Assembly (NCBI GenBank): GCA_036567965.1
Contig: DATCTN010000016.1
Coordinates: 62,001-126,000 of the forward strand
Reading direction: 5' to 3'
DNA length: 64,000 nucleotides
Origin: Candidatus Kryptoniota bacterium
Lineage (GTDB): Bacteria; Bacteroidota; Ignavibacteria; Kryptoniales; JAKASW01
The translations under genes and the position numbers were made by a program. Every line of letters starts with the position of its first letter. Within the stretch, counting starts at the first letter, position 1. Below, one piece after another: positions 11,989 through 52,891 of this stretch. A model generated the notes under the pieces. The model did no database searches and had not been told where the DNA came from. It worked only from the letters and a program-made list of their open reading frames with translations.

Positions 11989-13386
11989 TTGTTCAGACTT
12001 TTTGTTCATAGGGAGGCGCACGCTCAGCTCTCGATCATTCTTCTCTGCGGAGCGATCTTCTGTGGACAAGCTGCTGCACAGAACCGCATCGTCGGCTACT
12101 ATGCCGCATACAATTCGGGTCTTCTTCCCTATGATCAGGTAGAGTATTCAAACCTTACAGATGTTATCGTCGCGTTCGCGATTCCCAATTCGGATGGAAG
12201 CATAAGCTTCATTGATCCATCCATGCCTTTCCCCGGCCTCGTCAGCGCTGCACACGCCGCAGGGACTAAAGTTCTGATTTCGTTAGGTGGAGCGTCGGGT
12301 GGTACGGCATTCCCTCTCGTGACGGCCGACTCAACGTCGAGGGCTCGCTTTATAAACAGTATCATCGCCTTTCTGACCACGAACAGCTACGACGGGGTCG
12401 ATCTAGATTGGGAGACACCCGCGGATTCACAGGAGACCGACCAGTTGACAGCGCTCGTCCGGGATATGAGGGCTCGCTTCGCCCAAACTGATTCGTCGTT
12501 CTTGATCACCATGGCAATACCGCCGGGCCCATGGGGCGGACAACATTTCGATATCCGCAACCTTGTTGCAAATGTCGATTGGTTCAACGTGATGTGCTAT
12601 GATTTTGTCGGGTCATGGTCCACCTACGCCGGCCATAATTCACCGTTATACCAGGCGGTCGACGATTCCAACCAGGCGGGATCCGATTCGCTAGCCGTCG
12701 CATACTGGATCGGTAGAGGGTCACGATCGGTAGCCATACCAAAAGACAAACTGGTACTCGGTGTACCATTTTACTCTGTGCAATTCGATGCACCCGGACT
12801 CTACAGGATGTTATCGAATTCTACCACGACGAATCCATATTATCCTGAGGTCATGAGCGATCTTGCCGCGGGATGGGTATATCATTGGGATAATGTCTCG
12901 AAGGTGCCGTACCTTATGAACTCATCAGGTACCGAGTTCATTACGTTTGAAGACACGAACTCCATCGCGATTAAGGTCGAGTTCTGCAGCCGTCAGCAGC
13001 TCGGCGGACTAATGATCTGGGAGCTCAGCCAGGATCTGTATAATGGGCACCAACCGCTTCTCGAGACCCTTGCCGGGAAGATGAAGACAACTACGGCGGT
13101 CGTGGCACATCCGGTTGCTGCGTCTCAATTCAAGCTTCTTCAGAATTATCCCAATCCGTTCAACCCGACAACCGTAATCAGCTACAAGTTGTCGACATCC
13201 AGCTACGTCACGCTCAGGGTCTATGATGCACTTGGCAGGGAAGTGCGTACACTGCAGAACGGGTGGACAAATCCGGGAACGCATGAAATTGTGTTCGACG
13301 CGTCCGGTTTCGCGAGCGGAATTTATCTCTGCACCATCACTTCAGGAAGTTTCATGCAGACGGAAAAAATGATTCTGATTAGATAG
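11989..13386 (+). CDS. GH18 chitinase with T9SS sorting domain
   Basis: Extracellular chitinase (or related GH18 enzyme) cleaving beta-1,4 GlcNAc linkages with retention. The barrel begins 'RIVGYYAAYN' and holds the family signature DGxDxDxE as 'YDGVDLDWE', with E142 as the predicted acid. It also has 'KVLISLGGASGG' (strand 3), 'WFNVMCYDF' and 'GLMIWELSQD' (strand 8 Trp). The C-terminal ~85 residues are a T9SS domain ('NYPNPFNPTTVISY' ... 'TEKMILIR'). The start is TTG at 11989 with GGGAG about 11 bp upstream; the signal peptide ends near 'GQAAAQN'. It precedes the permease and chitobiose phosphorylase genes with short gaps, which supports a role in chitin use. Confidence 0.88.
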   Translation: MFRLFVHREAHAQLSIILLCGAIFCGQAAAQNRIVGYYAAYNSGLLPYDQVEYSNLTDVIVAFAIPNSDGSISFIDPSMPFPGLVSAAHAAGTKVLISLGGASGGTAFPLVTADSTSRARFINSIIAFLTTNSYDGVDLDWETPADSQETDQLTALVRDMRARFAQTDSSFLITMAIPPGPWGGQHFDIRNLVANVDWFNVMCYDFVGSWSTYAGHNSPLYQAVDDSNQAGSDSLAVAYWIGRGSRSVAIPKDKLVLGVPFYSVQFDAPGLYRMLSNSTTTNPYYPEVMSDLAAGWVYHWDNVSKVPYLMNSSGTEFITFEDTNSIAIKVEFCSRQQLGGLMIWELSQDLYNGHQPLLETLAGKMKTTTAVVAHPVAASQFKLLQNYPNPFNPTTVISYKLSTSSYVTLRVYDALGREVRTLQNGWTNPGTHEIVFDASGFASGIYLCTITSGSFMQTEKMILIR

Positions 13387-32651: not shown

Positions 32652-35078
32652 CTACTTCAAAAGCAACATCTTCTTAGTCACAAAATAACTCCCGGCTCTT
32701 AACGAATAGAAGTAAACACCGCTGCTGAGTCGCGAAGCATCGAAATCCAATTCGTAATTTCCCGGCGACATTCGCTGGTGAAGAAGCGTTTCTACTTCCC
32801 GGCCCAATACATCGTACACGGTCAGTGTCACGTCTCCCGCATTCGGCAGCGCGAATCTTATACGGGTCGACGGGTTGAATGGGTTCGGGAAATTCTGAGA
32901 CAGTGAATATGTTTTTGGAAGCAAATCATTTGTAGATCGCACACCCGTAGCAAGCGTCCCCTGAACCATTATTTCTGCAATCGAGTAAGCTCCGTTGGTC
33001 CCCTGGCTTAGTAACAAGAGTGCGAGGTATCTCGCCGTGTCCTGCAATCCAGAAACCGTCTCGACGTAGTTTGTACCGCCGGTTCCGTTTGACTGTGACT
33101 TTACCACGATCCAATTCACGTTGTCAGGAGCGAGCTGTAGAGAGTAAGATTTCGCGTATGCATGGTTTCCCCACCGGATGGTAACCTGGGTGACGGCAAA
33201 CAAATTTCCCATGTCAATCCTAACCCATTGAGCCGTCGGGGAGGCGGAAGCCTGCCAACGCGTGAAGTTGTTGCCATCGACAATATTCTGAGGATTGCTG
33301 AAGGTGTATGTTACGGTATCGTTCGACGAAGCAGTCACCGTTCCTTGGTATGCCCTGTCTACTTGATCCGGCGGGAGAACCTGTATCGAGATCGTCGTCG
33401 AATCGTGCTCGTCTCCCTCGGTGAGAAGCGTGTAAGTATTGTTGACCACATCCGGATAAACCACGATGGAATCTACGACCGGCACAGTCGCATTGTTAAG
33501 TGTGGCCGTAGAATTTTTGACCACCTGCCAGACAAGCGAAGTGCTCTCTCCTGTACCGATTTGAAGGGGAGTTGCCTTAAAGCTCATGATTCTTCCCGTC
33601 GGCAGGACTGTGACCGTCAGCCTCGACGTATCGTTCACCATGCCAGAGGCGGTTAAGGTGTAAGAGGTGGTTACGAGAGGCGAGACTATCACGCTGTCCT
33701 TAACCGATGACTCGCTCAAGCCGTTAAATGTGACCGTCGAGCCGGGCTCCGCATCCCATCTAATTACTGTGCTGTCTGTTTTCTGAATCGTGCCCGGTGT
33801 CGCACTGAATACATATATGCTTCCGGTCTTCGGGAACACGATGATATCGTTCCTGTAATTTGCAAACATGTACTGCAGTGCACTCCATGTATCCGTCAAC
33901 GACGTCTTGGTCTGATCCTCTGCCCAGGCCCACATGAGCGCGCCTGCATATCCGTTATTGTATAACCTGGGATATAAGACCCCGTCGGCAAGCCCGTCGG
34001 TCGGCGCCATAAAGAATTCTCCGATGACAAGGGGCTTGTCAAGCATGTATGCGCTGCAATTATGCAGGAAAGGACTGTATGACGTTCCCGCTCCGCTGTA
34101 GTAGTCGACGGTGTAGAAATCGAGCGTACCGTCGCTATCTCCGCCTGCTGCCTTGAGGCGCGCGTCGGTGTAGTAGTTTGTATTTCCCGCCAGCGAGATC
34201 TTTTGCATGTACGCGACCCAGTCGGCGGTGGTCATGTTAGTCCGGTGGAGAATGTTGAATTCATTTGTGTACTGACTTACTTGCTGCGGAGAAAGACTGC
34301 TCACGTTGAACTGACCCTGGATGGTGCCGGCAGGCGATTGCACGTCAGTGTTTGACTGCATCGTGTTCGCGTCCAGCGTAACAAGTGCGCTCGTGTCTGT
34401 GCGGTGGATTGCGCCGGCGATCAGGTTCACGAATCTTTGAATGTCGGCAATCGGCACATGCACGCGATTGCCCCAGCCGAGCACGTCGCTGAACCCTTCC
34501 GGCTCGATCACGATGTTCCACGACTGGATTGCCGGGTTGCCTTTCAAGGAGTCGACCATCGGAATCAAAGCGTTTCTTATGTACGCCATGGTGTACGCAG
34601 TGTCGGTGAATAGTTTCGCGTTCCGGTATAATTGGGCCGAGTCCAGCTCATCTGTGCTCAGCAGGTCGTGCGACCATAAAGTCATCATAATCCCGACGCT
34701 ATATTGACTCGCAAGCGAGAGGATCTGCTTGAGGTCCTGGATCATGTACTGCCCGGGCCCGGTCACCAATCCGGTGTCGTTGTACACAGGCGTTTGTACA
34801 CCGTCGACATGCATCCAGAATTTCAAAACGTTCCCACCATTGTCGTGAACAGTCTTGAACTCGGTGGCGAATTGTGTGAGGTCGGGACTTGCACCCAGGT
34901 CGTTAGCGTAATTTACCCACGCGATATTGATCCCGCTCAAGAAAATTTCCTTGTTCGCGTAGTGAGTCCTGGATTGAGAACGAACGGGTTCAGATGTAAA
35001 TCCGATCATTATCGGCAACGCCAATAACAAGATCGCCGGATTCATCTTTATGAATAACCTCGTAAAGATTGCGTTCAT
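32652..35078 (-). CDS. Multidomain secreted GH5-like glycanase with F5/8C (CBM32-like) and T9SS domains
   Basis: An 808-residue secreted enzyme, likely acting on beta-mannan or a related glucan. After the signal peptide a clan-A barrel (about 40-415) opens 'IFLSGINIAWVNYAND' and includes 'NVLKFWMHVDG', the acid/base E192 in 'WNIVIEPEG' and the nucleophile E354 in 'LVIGEFFMAP'. Two Ig-like modules follow (about 420-580), then a discoidin-type module (about 595-715, 'WQASASPTAQWVRIDMG'), which often binds sugars, and a T9SS tail ('NFPNPFNPSTRIRF' ... 'KKMLLLK'). The start ATG 35078 has GGAGGT 5 bp upstream. The family is GH5-like by motif order; the subfamily is not resolved. The 35171-35196 motif lies about 95 bp upstream. 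Confidence 0.8.
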   Translation of the reverse strand: MNAIFTRLFIKMNPAILLLALPIMIGFTSEPVRSQSRTHYANKEIFLSGINIAWVNYANDLGASPDLTQFATEFKTVHDNGGNVLKFWMHVDGVQTPVYNDTGLVTGPGQYMIQDLKQILSLASQYSVGIMMTLWSHDLLSTDELDSAQLYRNAKLFTDTAYTMAYIRNALIPMVDSLKGNPAIQSWNIVIEPEGFSDVLGWGNRVHVPIADIQRFVNLIAGAIHRTDTSALVTLDANTMQSNTDVQSPAGTIQGQFNVSSLSPQQVSQYTNEFNILHRTNMTTADWVAYMQKISLAGNTNYYTDARLKAAGGDSDGTLDFYTVDYYSGAGTSYSPFLHNCSAYMLDKPLVIGEFFMAPTDGLADGVLYPRLYNNGYAGALMWAWAEDQTKTSLTDTWSALQYMFANYRNDIIVFPKTGSIYVFSATPGTIQKTDSTVIRWDAEPGSTVTFNGLSESSVKDSVIVSPLVTTSYTLTASGMVNDTSRLTVTVLPTGRIMSFKATPLQIGTGESTSLVWQVVKNSTATLNNATVPVVDSIVVYPDVVNNTYTLLTEGDEHDSTTISIQVLPPDQVDRAYQGTVTASSNDTVTYTFSNPQNIVDGNNFTRWQASASPTAQWVRIDMGNLFAVTQVTIRWGNHAYAKSYSLQLAPDNVNWIVVKSQSNGTGGTNYVETVSGLQDTARYLALLLLSQGTNGAYSIAEIMVQGTLATGVRSTNDLLPKTYSLSQNFPNPFNPSTRIRFALPNAGDVTLTVYDVLGREVETLLHQRMSPGNYELDFDASRLSSGVYFYSLRAGSYFVTKKMLLLK

Positions 35079-35170
35079 CTTACCTCCAGTTTTAATAATG
35101 ATTCTGAAATGTCCGACGCTTTGATCCCTCGAAACGTTATCCTGACATTATTTCCCATCGAGTCCCTGAT

Positions 35171-35196
35171 CGACTGATTATGTATGAACTTTAACG
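35171..35196 (-). promoter_or_regulatory. Conserved 26-bp motif upstream of GH5-like gene
   Basis: Second full copy of the motif at 19982-20007 (22 of 26 positions identical), oriented toward the minus-strand glycanase and leaving a leader of about 90 nt. Shared spacing and sequence at two unrelated genes point to a common promoter or regulator. Confidence 0.5.
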
Positions 35197-35344
35197 AAAA
35201 TAATCAATATCAACCGTTGAAAACAGGCGAACTCCCTGATGCCGATTTTCCTGCACCTTAGCGTGACAAAACGAATTATCGTATGCAGATTCCGAAGAGA
35301 TGAAATACTTACGATAATCACATAGAAATGAACAGGGACCCATA

Positions 35345-35464
35345 AGGGATCAGGTAGTGGGCTATTTTGACGCTACTGAAATGTCCCATCGTTGAGTATT
35401 CTACGGCGTTCAAAAAAAACACAAATGTCATTTCACTTTGAAAGTAGCCCACTGCTAGGGATCA
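35345..35464. mobile_element. MITE-like element with 8-bp direct repeats
   Basis: A 104-bp segment (35353-35456) has imperfect terminal inverted repeats: left GGTAGTGGGCTATTTTGA, right end matching 14 of 18 positions when reversed, with a shared AGTGGGCTA core. It is flanked by identical AGGGATCA copies at 35345-35352 and 35457-35464, as expected of a target-site duplication. It has no coding capacity. It sits in the divergent promoter region, ending 16 bp before the -35 box of the mannanase gene, where it could affect expression. Confidence 0.65.
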
Positions 35465-35479
35465 CAGATTCTCCCTTTA

Positions 35480-35507
35480 TTGTCAGATTGTTTATATCTT
35501 TTATAAA
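35480..35507 (+). promoter_or_regulatory. Promoter of the GH5_7 mannanase gene
   Basis: TTGTCA (35480-35485), 16-bp spacer, TATAAA (35502-35507). Predicted transcription start is near 35514, which makes the ATG at 35514 unlikely as start codon and favours 35544. Confidence 0.65.
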
Positions 35508-35543
35508 TGTTTCATGACTGCAATCTCTTCTGAGGAAAAAGTG

Positions 35544-36902
35544 ATGCAAAAAATTCTCATCCTGCTGTGTTCGGTTCTTATGGCGTCCTTCCTGGAGGCG
35601 TGCTCAAGTTTTCTTTTCTGGGGTAAACCTGATTACGTGCGAGTCGACGGGATGCAATTTGAATTCGATGGCAAACCGTTCTACTATACCGGAACAAACA
35701 TGTGGGACGGCTGTTACCTCGGCTCGACGGGCAATACAGGCGATAGGCCGAGACTCCTCAGAGAACTCGACGATCTGAAATCGCTTGGCATCACTAACCT
35801 GCGCGTCCTCGGTGCTTCTGAGGAATCATATATAGAGAACTCTCTCAAACCTGCGATCCAGATTAAGCCGGGAGTCTACGACGAGAATTTACTGGACGGA
35901 CTGGATTTCCTTCTTTCAGAATTGGACAAGAGGGGCATGCACGCAGTGATTTTCCTGAACAATTACTGGGAGTGGTCGGGCGGCATGGCGCAATACGTCG
36001 ACTGGGCGAATGGCGGTGGCGGTGTCGATGCCGCAAATGGAAATTATGCGGCCTTCATGGACTACTCCGCTTCATTCTACGTGAATCAAAAAGCACAATC
36101 CCTCTTCTACAATTTTGTTACGGATCTCGTGACGAGAAGAAACCAGTATGACGGCCGTTATTATTATGAAGAGCCCTCAATAATGGCGTGGGAACTCGCG
36201 AACGAACCTCGTCCAGGTCGGGATGATAGGTATCTTCAACAGTATTACCAATGGATAGATTCTACAGCGCACTTCATCCACGCCCTCGATCCGAATCACC
36301 TTGTGACAACAGGTAGCGAAGGACTAATCGGCAACCTGCAAGACTCCACGATCTTCGTGACTTGCAACCGGTCGAAGTATATAGACTATCTGACATTTCA
36401 TCTCTGGCCGAAAAACTGGGGATGGTTCGACGCAAAGAACATCGACAAGACCTATTCGAGGACTGAATCGAATGCAATCGGTTACATCGACAAACATATC
36501 GCACTGGCGCGTGTGCTGGACAAACCGATTGTCATGGAGGAATTCGGAATGCCGCGCGACAGCGAGCTCTGCAAGCCCGGCACTCCGACGACCGCGAGAG
36601 ACAGGTATTTCAGGAAGATCCTCAGGATTATCTACGACAGCGCCGCCACCGGCGCGCCTATTGCCGGCACAAATGTCTGGGGCTGGGGCGGAGAAGGGAG
36701 AGGACTCCACCCGGACGACAGATGGCAGCCGGGTGACCCTTTTACAGGAGACCCGCCTCAGGAAGCTCAGGGTCTCAACTCGATTTACGATGTGGACACT
36801 ACAACCCTTGCCATTTTCAATCGGAACGCAATGGAGATGATTGCGCTCCGGAAAAGTGAAAGTCTTCTGGAACAGAAAAAGCTTGCTGAATTGAGGAAGT
36901 GA
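35544..36902 (+). CDS. GH5_7-type endo-beta-1,4-mannanase, likely lipoprotein
   Basis: A ~452-residue enzyme. The start is ATG 35544 ('MQKILILLCSVLMASFLEAC'), with GAGG 8 bp upstream and the predicted mRNA start near 35514; a longer frame adds 10 residues. A Cys follows the hydrophobic segment, so it is probably lipid-anchored, although the lipobox (LEAC) is imperfect. The barrel follows the mannanase pattern: 'FYYTGTNMWDGCYLG', 'NNYWEWSGGMAQY', the acid/base E221 in 'WELANEPRPG', the catalytic-site 'TFHLWPKNWGW' and the nucleophile E333 in 'VMEEFGMPRD'. It cuts mannan, glucomannan or galactomannan at the cell surface, feeding the epimerase and GH130 enzymes encoded further on. Confidence 0.88.
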   Translation: MQKILILLCSVLMASFLEACSSFLFWGKPDYVRVDGMQFEFDGKPFYYTGTNMWDGCYLGSTGNTGDRPRLLRELDDLKSLGITNLRVLGASEESYIENSLKPAIQIKPGVYDENLLDGLDFLLSELDKRGMHAVIFLNNYWEWSGGMAQYVDWANGGGGVDAANGNYAAFMDYSASFYVNQKAQSLFYNFVTDLVTRRNQYDGRYYYEEPSIMAWELANEPRPGRDDRYLQQYYQWIDSTAHFIHALDPNHLVTTGSEGLIGNLQDSTIFVTCNRSKYIDYLTFHLWPKNWGWFDAKNIDKTYSRTESNAIGYIDKHIALARVLDKPIVMEEFGMPRDSELCKPGTPTTARDRYFRKILRIIYDSAATGAPIAGTNVWGWGGEGRGLHPDDRWQPGDPFTGDPPQEAQGLNSIYDVDTTTLAIFNRNAMEMIALRKSESLLEQKKLAELRK

Positions 36903-49914: not shown

Positions 49915-49937
49915 TGCTCTGATTTGCAGCTGAGATA

Positions 49938-50552
49938 TTCGGCTAAAGCCGAAAATCATTGTTAATTCATTGCCGCAGGCTAAAGCTCGCGGCAATGTCA
50001 ATGAACTTTTCCACACACGCGTTTGTCCGCAAAGGTTCTTCTGCGCGGGTGCTGTTGTTCACGCAGGCTCATCTCCTCAAACGCTATTTGCCATTCAAGT
50101 CATCGTTCGCAGAAGCTTTCCACGACCCGAGCCGCTGTGCGCACGGGCCAACGCTTTCTCACGTCATTTCCCTCTCGAGATGATTTCGGCTCACGCCTTT
50201 CTCGATGCGGGCTATCGTCCCCGGGTGTCGTTGTCTGTACTGCCCATTGTCCGCTGGGGCATCGCCTGCATAGAACACTGCTCCGACCGGGAAGCCCACT
50301 TCCAGCGTAGTCCACTGCCTTGAGCAGACAGACCACCGCCTGCAGAGGTCACTCTCCCGACCGGGAGAGAAGCACTTCCTGCGTAGACCACTACGCCCAC
50401 CGAGCAGAGCACTGCCCGCATTGCCCACTGCCCCGACCAAATTGGTCACCGCCCCGATCAAATTGGTCATTGCCCCGACCCCAAATTGGTCATTGCCCCG
50501 ACCTTCAGGTCGGGGCAATGAGAACAAAACCCAGCCGGGCTTTAGCCCAATC
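49938..50552. repeat. Hairpin-bounded repeat array, copy 1 (left of transposase)
   Basis: The left end has two hairpins: TTCGGCTAAAGCCGAA (49938-49953) and a 30-bp one at 49968-49997 with outer stem CATTGCC/GGCAATG and inner GCTAAAGC (two mismatches). The right end is a perfect 30-bp palindrome (50491-50520; same outer stem, inner CCGACCT TC AGGTCGG) followed by GGGCTTTAGCCC. Between them are degenerate units of ~20-25 bp that become regular toward the right end, where the last three repeat CCCCGA(C/T)C with AAATTGGT. The last 62 bp (50491-50552) are identical to 51425-51486. No real gene lies inside. Confidence 0.8.
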
Positions 50553-50977
50553 TACTCTTTCAATCCCTGTTCTTCGAGGATTTCTTCGAACTCCTCGCTA
50601 AATGACTTCATACGATGGTGTGCTTCCTGGTTCTTAATATACTCTCGAACATTGTACACAGCCCCGTCACTGACCGAGAACGCAGCGAAATCGTCCTGCC
50701 ATTCAAACCTGCCCCTCAAGAGGCGCGTCGCGTTCACCCAGTGAGACGACTCTCCCTTGAGCAGTTGCGCGATTGCGCTGACGCTTTGAGTCGCGCCAAG
50801 AGAAACAAGAACATGGACATGATCTTCAACGCAGTTGATTGCATCGATGTAGATGCCCTTGTCGCGGGCATTCTCGATGATGTGATTTATCAGTTTCCCT
50901 TTCAGCTCGTGAGCTATTGTCTTCTCCCGGTACTTTGTCGACCAAACAAAATGAATCCACAATTTCAGGTAAGACAT
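50552..50977 (-). CDS. IS200-type Y1 transposase, RAYT-like
   Basis: A 141-residue single-strand DNA transposase of the HUH/Y1 superfamily. It starts 'MSYLKLWIHFVWSTKYR', has the HUH motif in 'CVEDHVHVLVSL' and the catalytic Tyr probably in 'NVREYIKNQEAHH'. The ribosome site GGAAGGAGG before ATG 50977 is very strong. It lies between two copies of a hairpin array, its stop codon touching the right module of copy 1, as in REP-associated tyrosine transposases whose substrates are short palindromic repeats. It appears intact, so it could still act on the arrays. Confidence 0.88.
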   Translation of the reverse strand: MSYLKLWIHFVWSTKYREKTIAHELKGKLINHIIENARDKGIYIDAINCVEDHVHVLVSLGATQSVSAIAQLLKGESSHWVNATRLLRGRFEWQDDFAAFSVSDGAVYNVREYIKNQEAHHRMKSFSEEFEEILEEQGLKE

Positions 50978-51011
50978 GTCCCCCTCCTTCCTATCCTTTT
51001 CTGAATTCGTA

Positions 51012-51486
51012 TTCGGCTGAAGCCGAATAACTATGTTAATTCATTGCCGCGAGCTAAAGCTCGCGGCAATGTTCCTATGACCACTTTCCAGACAGAACGA
51101 ACTACTGCCCTGACGGGCGTACAACTGCTCAGACAGGATGACGAACCACTTTCCAGACAGAACGAACCACTGCCCTGACGGGCGAACCACTGTCCAGACA
51201 GGACGAACCATTGTCCTGACAGAACGACGAACCACTGCCGAGTCAGGACGAACCATTGTCCTGACAGGACGACGAACCACTGCCGGGTCAGGACGAACCA
51301 TTGTCCTGACAGCCTTGCCACTGCCCCAACAGCCTTGGCCTCTGCCCCGACAGCCTTGCCACCGCCCCGACGCCTTGGCTATTGCCCCGACACAGCCTTG
51401 CCATTGGCCCCGACACAGCCTTGCCATTGCCCCGACCTTCAGGTCGGGGCAATGAGAACAAAACCCAGCCGGGCTTTAGCCCAATC
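51012..51486. repeat. Hairpin-bounded repeat array, copy 2 (right of transposase)
   Basis: Left hairpins are TTCGGCTGAAGCCGAA (51012-51027) and a perfect 30-bp palindrome at 51042-51071 (outer CATTGCC/GGCAATG, inner GCGAGCT AA AGCTCGC). The interior (51072-51424) is about 15-17 tandem units of ~20-24 bp of type CCAYTGYCCNGACNG. Units near the right end keep CCATTGCCCCGAC exactly, those at the left are the most diverged. The right module (51425-51486) is identical over 62 bp to that of copy 1 and ends with GGGCTTTAGCCC, which contains the stop codon of the epimerase gene. Confidence 0.8.
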
Positions 51487-52891
51487 CCTCAGCGATTTTT
51501 CTCCAGTGTTCGATAAACTCACTCATCTCCTTCGCTGCCTTTGCAAACCCTGGATTCTTCGGACTCTTCGCCGGGAAATCGCCTGCCAGCATCTTCGCGC
51601 AATTCATCAGCGCTCTACCGGTGTGGTATGCTGCTTTCCAGATGTGACCCTTAGGACCATTTTTGAAATGTGGCTCCCTGTCCAATCCGCCCTCATACCA
51701 GTCGCCGTGTTTGTGATCGAGAAGATAATTCTTGATGTAACTCCACTGCTTCAGGAAATGTTCGTGGTACGTCGCCTCATTTGGAAATATCTTCGACATC
51801 ATAAGGAGCACATTCAGCCCTTCCGCCTGCGCCCACCAGTTCTTCGTGTTCTTGATGACAGTGCATTTCTTTTCACCGGCGAAATAATATGCCTCATCGA
51901 CAAACCCGCCGTTCTCCTTGTCCCATCCGTTCGCGAGAGCGTGATCCAGCATCTTCTTCGCCACAGTTAGAGTTTTCTTGTCGTCTTTCGATCCAAGAAT
52001 GTTCGACGCCTCGAGCATCAGGAATCCCGTCTCATAATTGTGCCCGAATGAAACGTGATCGAGTCTGTAATTCTTTTCCCTGATCTCCTTCGGGGTATTC
52101 TTGAATGACAGCGGATTCCAATCGTTGTCAAAAAATAAGTTCATATACCCTTCCGGGGCAGTGATCGTGTCTCTGATTAGTAATAAGAGATCGTTCAGCC
52201 TGTTCTTCAGCGTTTTATCCGGCCATACGCCGTAAAGTTCGGTATAGGCTTCCAGAAGATGAATTGACGAATTTTGGTCCTTGTAACCCGCCTCAACTTC
52301 GTCGTATGCTTTTGTCTTATATGGAGCGTTCTTGCCGTACGGTTTTCCTTCCGCAGTCATGAATTGGAAATAACCTCTGCCATTCGGATCATGTGCGTGT
52401 TCTTCGATCCATGCGAATCCCTCTTTCGCCAGATCGAGCACTTTCGGATCTTTCGTGAGTTCGTATAACGCCGCGAGTCCGTAGACCGCGAACGCACAAC
52501 CGTATGTCCGCTTCTCGTCAAAGAACCCGAGGTAATCGCAGACTTCGCCGTCGCCGCCCCTCATCTGAAAGAAGCCGCCGTTTTTCTGGTCCCACATTTT
52601 CTTTCTGAAAAATTCGTACCCGTGCTTCGCCGCCTCGGCATAAGTCGTACTGTCGAACAGCATCGCCGCCTTCGCCGTCGTCCACACATGACGTCCCTGC
52701 GTCACGACCATCTTATGCTGGATCGGCTCGAGTTTGAAATCAAATGAAATATCTGTGAAGTATCCGCCATACTTTTTATCAACGGCAAGCGGATACCATT
52801 TCTCGAGAAGATTCTCCCCAAGTGAATTCAGGATCTCTCGAAATATCGTCTCATCCTTTGATGGCTGATTTGAAGTCTGACCTTTTGGCAT
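51476..52891 (-). CDS. Cellobiose 2-epimerase (AGE family)
   Basis: A 471-residue cytoplasmic (alpha/alpha)6-barrel enzyme that epimerises C2 of the reducing-end sugar, here most usefully mannobiose to mannosyl-glucose. It shows the family motifs in order: 'VVTQGRHVWTTAKA', 'RTYGCAFAVYGLAALYEL', 'YKDQNSSIHLLEAYTEL', 'VSFGHNYETGFLMLEA', 'NWWAQAEGLNVLL' and 'GHIWKAAYHTGRALM', containing the expected catalytic His and Glu residues. It is longer than the usual ~400, with a short N-terminal extension and a C-terminal helix. AAAGGTGAG precedes ATG 52891. The stop codon (51476-51478) lies inside a GGGCTAAAGCCC hairpin of the repeat array. With the GH130 enzyme at 46528 it completes the mannobiose route. 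Confidence 0.87.
   Translation of the reverse strand: MPKGQTSNQPSKDETIFREILNSLGENLLEKWYPLAVDKKYGGYFTDISFDFKLEPIQHKMVVTQGRHVWTTAKAAMLFDSTTYAEAAKHGYEFFRKKMWDQKNGGFFQMRGGDGEVCDYLGFFDEKRTYGCAFAVYGLAALYELTKDPKVLDLAKEGFAWIEEHAHDPNGRGYFQFMTAEGKPYGKNAPYKTKAYDEVEAGYKDQNSSIHLLEAYTELYGVWPDKTLKNRLNDLLLLIRDTITAPEGYMNLFFDNDWNPLSFKNTPKEIREKNYRLDHVSFGHNYETGFLMLEASNILGSKDDKKTLTVAKKMLDHALANGWDKENGGFVDEAYYFAGEKKCTVIKNTKNWWAQAEGLNVLLMMSKIFPNEATYHEHFLKQWSYIKNYLLDHKHGDWYEGGLDREPHFKNGPKGHIWKAAYHTGRALMNCAKMLAGDFPAKSPKNPGFAKAAKEMSEFIEHWRKIAEGLG

What the first reader, a model, noticed from the sequence alone, without database searches (positions are those of the whole stretch)
35345..35464. MITE-like insertion with 8-bp target duplication next to the mannanase promoter
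A 104-bp non-coding element with inverted ends (core AGTGGGCTA) sits between AGGGATCA direct repeats and stops 16 bp from the -35 box. The duplication is intact, implying a recent insertion that may rewire mannanase expression.
Basis: seen in the sequence. Interest (0 to 1): 0.55.

Follow-up and report, generated by a model that had tools for sequence, protein, structure and literature searches.

The report
Shortened MITE of IS1-like transposons
A small, gene-free jumping DNA element really did land beside a sugar-degrading enzyme gene, and its ends match a family of larger IS1-like jumping elements that can explain how it moved; it is a genuine but fairly ordinary find, and any effect on the gene is unproven.

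Summary
A 104-bp element (35353-35456) lies between perfect 8-bp repeats AGGGATCA. It is one of 16 related copies in this genome; 7 of the 15 copies with two ends have perfect 8-bp target duplications. No match was found in 60 relatives or in 394 sampled genomes of the phylum (overlapping sets). The 12 other copies read end to end are 156-381 bp. The window copy is a shortened form that lost a palindrome-rich core between short direct repeats.

The missing partner family was found. IS1-like DDE transposons on IMG/VR contigs have ends GGTAGTGGGCTACTTTGA and exact 8-bp duplications; the window element's ends match these at 17/18 and 15/18. This genome carries one related 3,539-bp transposon with a sibling end type (GGTAGTGTCCTAATTTG), but no transposon with exactly the MITE's ends was seen. 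Best reading: a MITE mobilised in trans by an IS1-like transposase.

'Recent' is supported only relatively (perfect duplication; left 78 bp identical to two other copies). 'Rewires mannanase expression' is not supported: no consensus promoter was found and no empty site could be aligned. New member of a known kind. A more interesting by-product is single-gene cassettes with the same ends on viral contigs.

The parts
35345..35352 (.). left copy of the 8-bp target-site duplication AGGGATCA
35353..35370 (+). left terminal inverted repeat GGTAGTGGGCTATTTTGA; 17 of 18 match GGTAGTGGGCTACTTTGA of the IS1-like transposons
35353..35430 (+). left arm of the MITE, 78/78 identical to the copies on contigs C8 (L002) and C7 (L003)
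35424..35433 (+). junction AATGTCATTT where the palindrome-rich core of the longer copies is missing; longer copies have AATGTCA-like repeats on both sides of the core
35439..35456 (-). right terminal inverted repeat, reads AGCAGTGGGCTACTTTCA on the minus strand; 15 of 18 match the same consensus
35457..35464 (.). right copy of the 8-bp target-site duplication AGGGATCA
32652..35078 (-). divergent neighbouring gene, F5/8 type C domain and Por secretion tail; the MITE lies in the 435-bp divergent intergenic region 35079-35513

Best explanation
The feature is a MITE: a transposase-free element that an IS1-like DDE transposase recognised in trans by its ends (consensus GGTAGTGGGCTACTTTGA) and inserted into AGGGATCA between two divergent genes, duplicating 8 bp. 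It belongs to a 16-copy family found only in this genome among those searched. The usual copy has a core of palindromes (ATTCCCG...CGGGAAT, dRS3-like as I recall). The window copy lost that core, most likely by replication slippage between AATGTCA direct repeats that flank the hairpin-forming core. Shown: copies, ends, duplications, and a transposon family with the same ends. Inferred: transposition in trans, slippage, and that the cognate transposase is lost or unassembled. Any effect on the GH5 gene is open.
For: Copies: 13 read end to end, two broken at contig ends whose flanking 8-mers match 8/8 and 7/8, one with its left end replaced (L014). Duplications: 8/8 in 7 of 15 two-ended copies, 7/8 in 3, 6/8 or less in 5. 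Partner family: with the transposase of a related resident transposon as query, 23 relatives came from IMG/VR; 8 of these 23 loci show a complete element with exact 8-bp duplication, and 4 of them (L089-L092) end in GGTAGTGGGCTACTTTGA. Counting also loci from the end-pattern scan, nine distinct transposases lie inside elements with exact 8-bp duplications: L089, L090, L092, L155 (GGGCTAC ends), L094 (GGCCTGA) and L079, L095, L096, L134 (TCCTAAT or TCTCA siblings). Transposase type: NF033558 (IS1) 6.9e-20 is the best NCBIfam match and PF03400 is over its cut-off; D66, D138, E202 are invariant in a 6-member alignment. External: IS1-family ISDge2 has the TIR GGTAGTGGCTGC (PMC7674623, passages seen); a composite transposon whose IS are 81% identical to IS1-family ISAba3 has GGTGGTGTTTC... 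TIRs and 8-bp duplications (PMC6382973, passages seen). Direction of the core change: the 12 other end-to-end copies all keep at least part of the core, including the most diverged; L014 shows the exact AATGTCA recombination product (by eye).
Against: No transposon with GGTAGTGGGCTAY ends was found in this assembly. The own-genome pattern scan (16 bases, up to 3 mismatches) gave 28 + 27 matches against 30 + 44 for the reversed control, so only the low-mismatch or paired hits carry weight; by eye its inverted pairs under 6 kb are 11 MITE copies and the C15 transposon (one search likewise 16 + 14 against 38 + 33). The best Pfam match of the C15 transposase is DDE_Tnp_IS240 (PF13610, 1.2e-6), ahead of IS1 (PF03400, 2e-5); NF033558 is below its curated cut-off (71.8 against 100), with weaker IS481 and IS6 matches. 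The own-genome PF03400 scan reported nothing at 0.001, so it missed this gene and does not exclude others. In 15 of 23 IMG/VR loci no paired ends with exact duplication were found. The MITE interior shows no likeness to the transposons beyond about 18 bp (by eye). The window junction differs from the perfect AATGTCA product by one base (T for C).
Confidence: 0.88

Rival explanations
1. The MITE is moved by the resident C15 transposon's own transposase (TIR GGTAGTGTCCTAATTTG), i.e. cross-mobilisation by a sibling enzyme rather than by a lost cognate.
For: It is the only transposon with paired ends of this kind seen in the assembly, with an exact 8-bp duplication GAATTTCA and an open 279-aa transposase; its ends agree with the MITE pattern at 13 of 16 positions.
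Against: End types tend to follow transposase groups: L089, L090 and L092 with GGGCTAC ends form one clade (100/99) apart from the C15 enzyme, to which they are 47-48% identical. Only 9 of 21 tree rows have known ends and 6 of 18 inner branches are open, so this is weak.
Confidence: 0.3
2. The short form is the original and the longer copies gained the palindromic core by later insertion.
For: The core is bounded by AATGTCA-like repeats that could also be a duplication; L014 also has the short junction.
Against: All 12 other end-to-end copies have at least part of the core, down to the most diverged one (54 of 79 aligned positions in the left arm), while the coreless window copy is identical over 78 bp to two core-bearing copies.
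Confidence: 0.08
3. The inverted ends are a regulatory palindrome or attenuator of the GH5 gene and the direct repeats are chance.
For: The + strand folds better than shuffles (z -3.54; - strand only -1.72), and the element lies upstream of the gene.
Against: Related sequence sits at 15 other sites with different flanks, many with their own 8-bp duplications; no same-genus genome has it.
Confidence: 0.02
4. Mobilised by another IS family with 8-bp duplications (IS21, ISL3, IS1595, IS256, IS6 or an IS4-type).
For: These families include members with 8-bp duplications (recalled); the C15 transposase also matches an IS240/IS6-type domain (PF13610).
Against: Own-genome Pfam searches gave no ISL3, DDE_Tnp_1, IS1595 or IS256 match; the 4 IstB matches are partial and weak (E 2.9e-8 to 3.1e-4, three over the cut-off), for a model that rings in 13 of 14 control genomes, and were not examined further. 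IS6 and IS66 models were not searched genome-wide. Identity of the ends is to the IS1-like transposons.
Confidence: 0.04

Closest known systems
IS1-family insertion sequences (ISDge2 of Deinococcus geothermalis; ISAba3-like IS of Moraxella)
   Same: GGTAGTG/GGTGGTG-type termini (PMC7674623 and PMC6382973, passages seen); 8-bp duplications round the ISAba3-like composite transposon; transposase similarity
   Different: The window element has no transposase. The related transposons found here have one 274-297 aa transposase ORF and several carry passengers; the one tested scores below NCBI's IS1 cut-off
MITEs in bacteria, e.g. MITEAba12
   Same: Small non-autonomous element with inverted ends and a related larger element as proposed parent (PMC6382973: start of abstract and passages seen)
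   Different: Different ends and parent; this family has a modular palindromic core and a core-deleted form, and its exact parent was not found
Mobile insertion cassettes
   Same: The viral-contig elements noticed in passing carry a main ORF between the same ends and no transposase
   Different: The window element carries no gene. The term comes from the listing; the definition is recalled

Membership tests
MITE | short, non-coding, terminal inverted repeats | tested here: met
   104 bp; ends 17/18 and 15/18 to the consensus; no ORF of at least 80 aa overlaps it
MITE | target-site duplication of constant length | tested here: met
   8 bp; 8/8 in 7 of 15 two-ended copies, 7/8 in 3, 6/8 or less in 5
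MITE | multiple copies in the genome | tested here: met
   16 copies, counting two broken at contig ends and one truncated
MITE | autonomous partner with the same ends | tested here: inconclusive
   Found on IMG/VR contigs; in the own assembly only a sibling with a different end type
MITE | transposition shown in trans | not testable with these tools
   needs an assay
IS1-family origin of the ends | termini and duplication length as in IS1-family elements | tested here: met
   Nine distinct transposases inside elements with GGTAGTG/GGTGGTG ends and exact 8-bp duplications; two IS1-family examples in print
IS1-family origin of the ends | transposase over the curated IS1 model cut-off | tested here: not met
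   Only the C15 transposase was tested: NF033558 71.8 bits against 100; PF03400 25.4 against 24.1 is over, but PF13610 scores higher. It is therefore called IS1-like, not a member of IS1 proper

The most novel reading that the evidence does not exclude
The IS1-like enzymes with GGTAGTG ends support a three-tier mobile system: transposons with antitoxin-type passengers (ImmA/IrrE-type, SocA/Panacea), transposase-free single-gene cassettes (C5 DNA methylase, PAPS-reductase-domain proteins) on viral contigs, and gene-free MITEs such as the window element. All tiers share ends and 8-bp duplications, so one enzyme type would shuttle defence- and counter-defence-like genes among phages and hosts.
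Probability: 0.3. Interest if true: 0.55.

Novelty: new member of a known kind. Interest (0 to 1): 0.33.

Why it matters
It ties an orphan MITE in a little-studied lineage to a transposase family, and shows a core-deleted form that slippage over a hairpin can explain. It corrects the likely size of the insertion event: probably a longer element. The shared ends also link the MITE to gene-carrying cassettes on viral contigs. For the GH5 gene it offers a testable but so far unsupported regulatory change.

Tried and rejected
IS21 was my first guess from the end sequence; the IstB matches in this genome are weak and partial. ISL3, IS4-type, IS1595 and IS256 gave no match; the IS1 model also gave none genome-wide, although it later matched the C15 transposase as a protein. 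The genome-contig scan with a pattern spanning an inner motif gave 5 hits, none with an exact inverted TAGCCCACT in its locus; I read ORFs for two of the five and took all five as chance. My chance estimate of about 6 was a rough one of my own, not a call. The viral scan with it gave 0. Phage and plasmid records gave no match to the 120 bp. The Rfam gathering scan of the window gave 0. The phylum search scored at most two candidates per genome in the rows shown, so it is less sensitive. Empty site: the flanks, alone and joined, matched only 17-18 bp in 2 of 8 loci (E 0.099 or more), while the gene aligned at 64-73% DNA identity. Literature: searches listed no paper that, from titles and abstract starts, describes this MITE family; open-licence PMC papers only. 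The dRS3 likeness of the core is recalled. GTCATTCCCG has 4 one-mismatch and no exact matches in the window; its genome-wide number was not measured.

Rows dropped: four rows (14-17 bp, E 2.8 to 5.2) taken as chance. In one search, two elements without family ends (L117, L125) were left aside as unrelated, L093's 12/20 pair likewise. Duplicate contigs (L089/L131, L090/L091/L143/L151, L092/L158, L096/L097) were counted once among the nine transposases.

Full report
What is there. Between AGGGATCA at 35345-35352 and AGGGATCA at 35457-35464 lie 104 bases with inverted ends. They sit in the 435-bp region between a GH5 gene on the + strand and a divergent gene with an F5/8 type C domain and a Por secretion tail. 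A window-wide scan for exact 8-bp repeats with inverted ends gave 3 hits against 0 in each of 20 shuffles. The element is the weakest of the three at 11/14; the other two lie in the repeats round a Y1_Tnp (RAYT-like) gene.

Copies. The window is C16:62001-126000 of a 4.15-Mb, 32-contig assembly. A DNA search of it gave 32 rows. From these I read 13 copies end to end, two broken at contig ends (C7 end with C22 end, C5 end with C18 start; flanking 8-mers match 8/8 and 7/8) and one whose left end is replaced (L014). Among the 15 two-ended copies the flanking 8-mers agree 8/8 in 7, 7/8 in 3 and 6/8 or less in 5. Pooled over 28 elements of all kinds, and read on both strands, the duplications lean weakly towards GAAATTTC (best position 33 of 56). 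No match was found in 60 relatives, 12 of the same genus, nor in 394 other sampled genomes of the phylum with a shallower search (the sets overlap), nor in plasmid and phage records.

Anatomy. The other 12 end-to-end copies are 156-381 bp. They share a left arm of about 80 bp and a short right arm; between them lies a core with ATTCCCG...CGGGAAT palindromes and, in some, further nested palindromes. The window copy has no core. Its left arm is 78/78 identical to L002 and L003, and even the most diverged copy keeps core sequence, so the core was more likely lost than gained. The longer copies have AATGTCA-like repeats round the core, and L014 shows the joint expected from recombination between them; the window joint differs by one base. 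I infer slippage over the hairpin; whether before or after insertion here is unknown.

Transposase. Own-genome searches with IS21, ISL3, DDE_Tnp_1, IS1595, IS1 and IS256 models gave only weak, partial IstB matches. A search for the ends with up to 3 mismatches gave 55 matches against 74 for the reversed control, so the total is not above background; its inverted pairs under 6 kb, by eye, are 11 MITE copies and C15:41721-45259. That stretch has GGTAGTGTCCTAATTT at both ends, an exact 8-bp duplication GAATTTCA, 3,539 bp, an open 279-aa transposase, and passengers that include an ImmA/IrrE-type peptidase and an HTH-like protein. The transposase matches NF033558 (IS1) at 6.9e-20 but below its cut-off; in Pfam, DDE_Tnp_IS240 (1.2e-6) ranks above DDE_Tnp_IS1 (2e-5), both over their cut-offs. 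In plasmid records 29 hold a relative, all under 60% identity, and 7 of the 15 listed are annotated as IS1 transposases. I call it IS1-like.

Relatives. With this protein as query, 23 relatives came from IMG/VR. Found by protein and not by end sequence, L089, L090/L091 and L092 proved to be complete transposons ending in GGTAGTGGGCTACTTTGA with exact 8-bp duplications; in all, 8 of the 23 loci show a complete element. A scan of IMG/VR with those ends brought 54 stretches; 16 elements in 15 of them have paired ends and a duplication of 7/8 or 8/8, 6 with a transposase (one shortened) and 10 without. Nine distinct transposases lie inside elements with exact duplications. In a 21-row tree, L089, L090 and L092 form a clade (100/99) apart from the resident C15 enzyme; several forks are unresolved. 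D66, D138 and E202 are invariant in a 6-member alignment; that these are the catalytic residues is inference. In print: ISDge2 of the IS1 family has the TIR GGTAGTGGCTGC (PMC7674623, passages), and IS with highest identity to IS1-family ISAba3 have GGTGGTGTTTC... ends with 8-bp duplications round the composite transposon that they form (PMC6382973, passages).

Mechanism. Best supported: an IS1-like transposase of the GGGCTAC end type moved the element in trans. That enzyme is not in the assembly as far as the end search shows, or lies in an unassembled part. Cross-mobilisation by the C15 enzyme remains possible.

The gene. No sigma-70-like site was found in 35000-35600, and no Bacteroidota-type promoter pattern lies there. 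The flanks do not align to 8 same-genus loci, whose proteins are 53-72% identical. Rewiring is conjecture.

Verdict. A real, well-explained MITE: a new member of a known kind, with a core-deleted form. The by-product, cassettes with the same ends on viral contigs, deserves a follow-up more than the finding itself.

Noticed in passing
L126:1210-1914, L129:7531-8434, L130:7791-8684, L140:1224-2192, L119:3596-4216, L149:1492-1891, L152:72-629: Transposase-free elements on IMG/VR contigs with the same GGTAGTGGGCTAY-type ends and 8-bp duplications (exact except L119, 7/8), each with a main ORF. Pfam finds PAPS reductase domains in L129 and L140 and a C-5 cytosine DNA methylase in L130, nothing in L126, L119 and L152; L149 was not tested.
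   Followed up: partly
L105:9512-10092 and 12257-13098; L136:9091-9612: Two more such elements with exact 8-bp duplications near each other on one viral contig, which has 8 exact end matches in 13.9 kb; and in L136 a 522-bp element for which no ORF of at least 40 aa was printed, so MITE-like.
   Followed up: partly
L079:2722-6260 (G000:C15:41721-45259) and L155:1673-4851: IS1-like transposons with antitoxin-like passengers: an ImmA/IrrE-type peptidase and an HTH-like protein in one, a SocA/Panacea domain in the other; a 217-aa and a 295-aa ORF look alike by eye.
   Followed up: partly
window 49936-51493: Y1_Tnp gene (PF01797, 5.4e-27) at 50552-50977 on the minus strand, flanked by inverted palindromic repeats and degenerate short repeats: a RAYT/REP-like locus.
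   Followed up: partly
L002, L012, L014 flanks: Another palindromic repeat (CCTTGCGAAGGT...ACCTTCGCAAGG) lies next to MITE copies L002 and L012, and stands where the left part of L014 should be.
   Followed up: no
G000 contig ends C7/C22 and C5/C18: The assembly breaks inside two MITE copies; flanking 8-mers that match 8/8 and 7/8 suggest that these contigs adjoin.
   Followed up: partly
window 35337-35351, minus strand: One terminator-like site overlaps the left duplication (1 found, shuffle mean 0.3).
   Followed up: no
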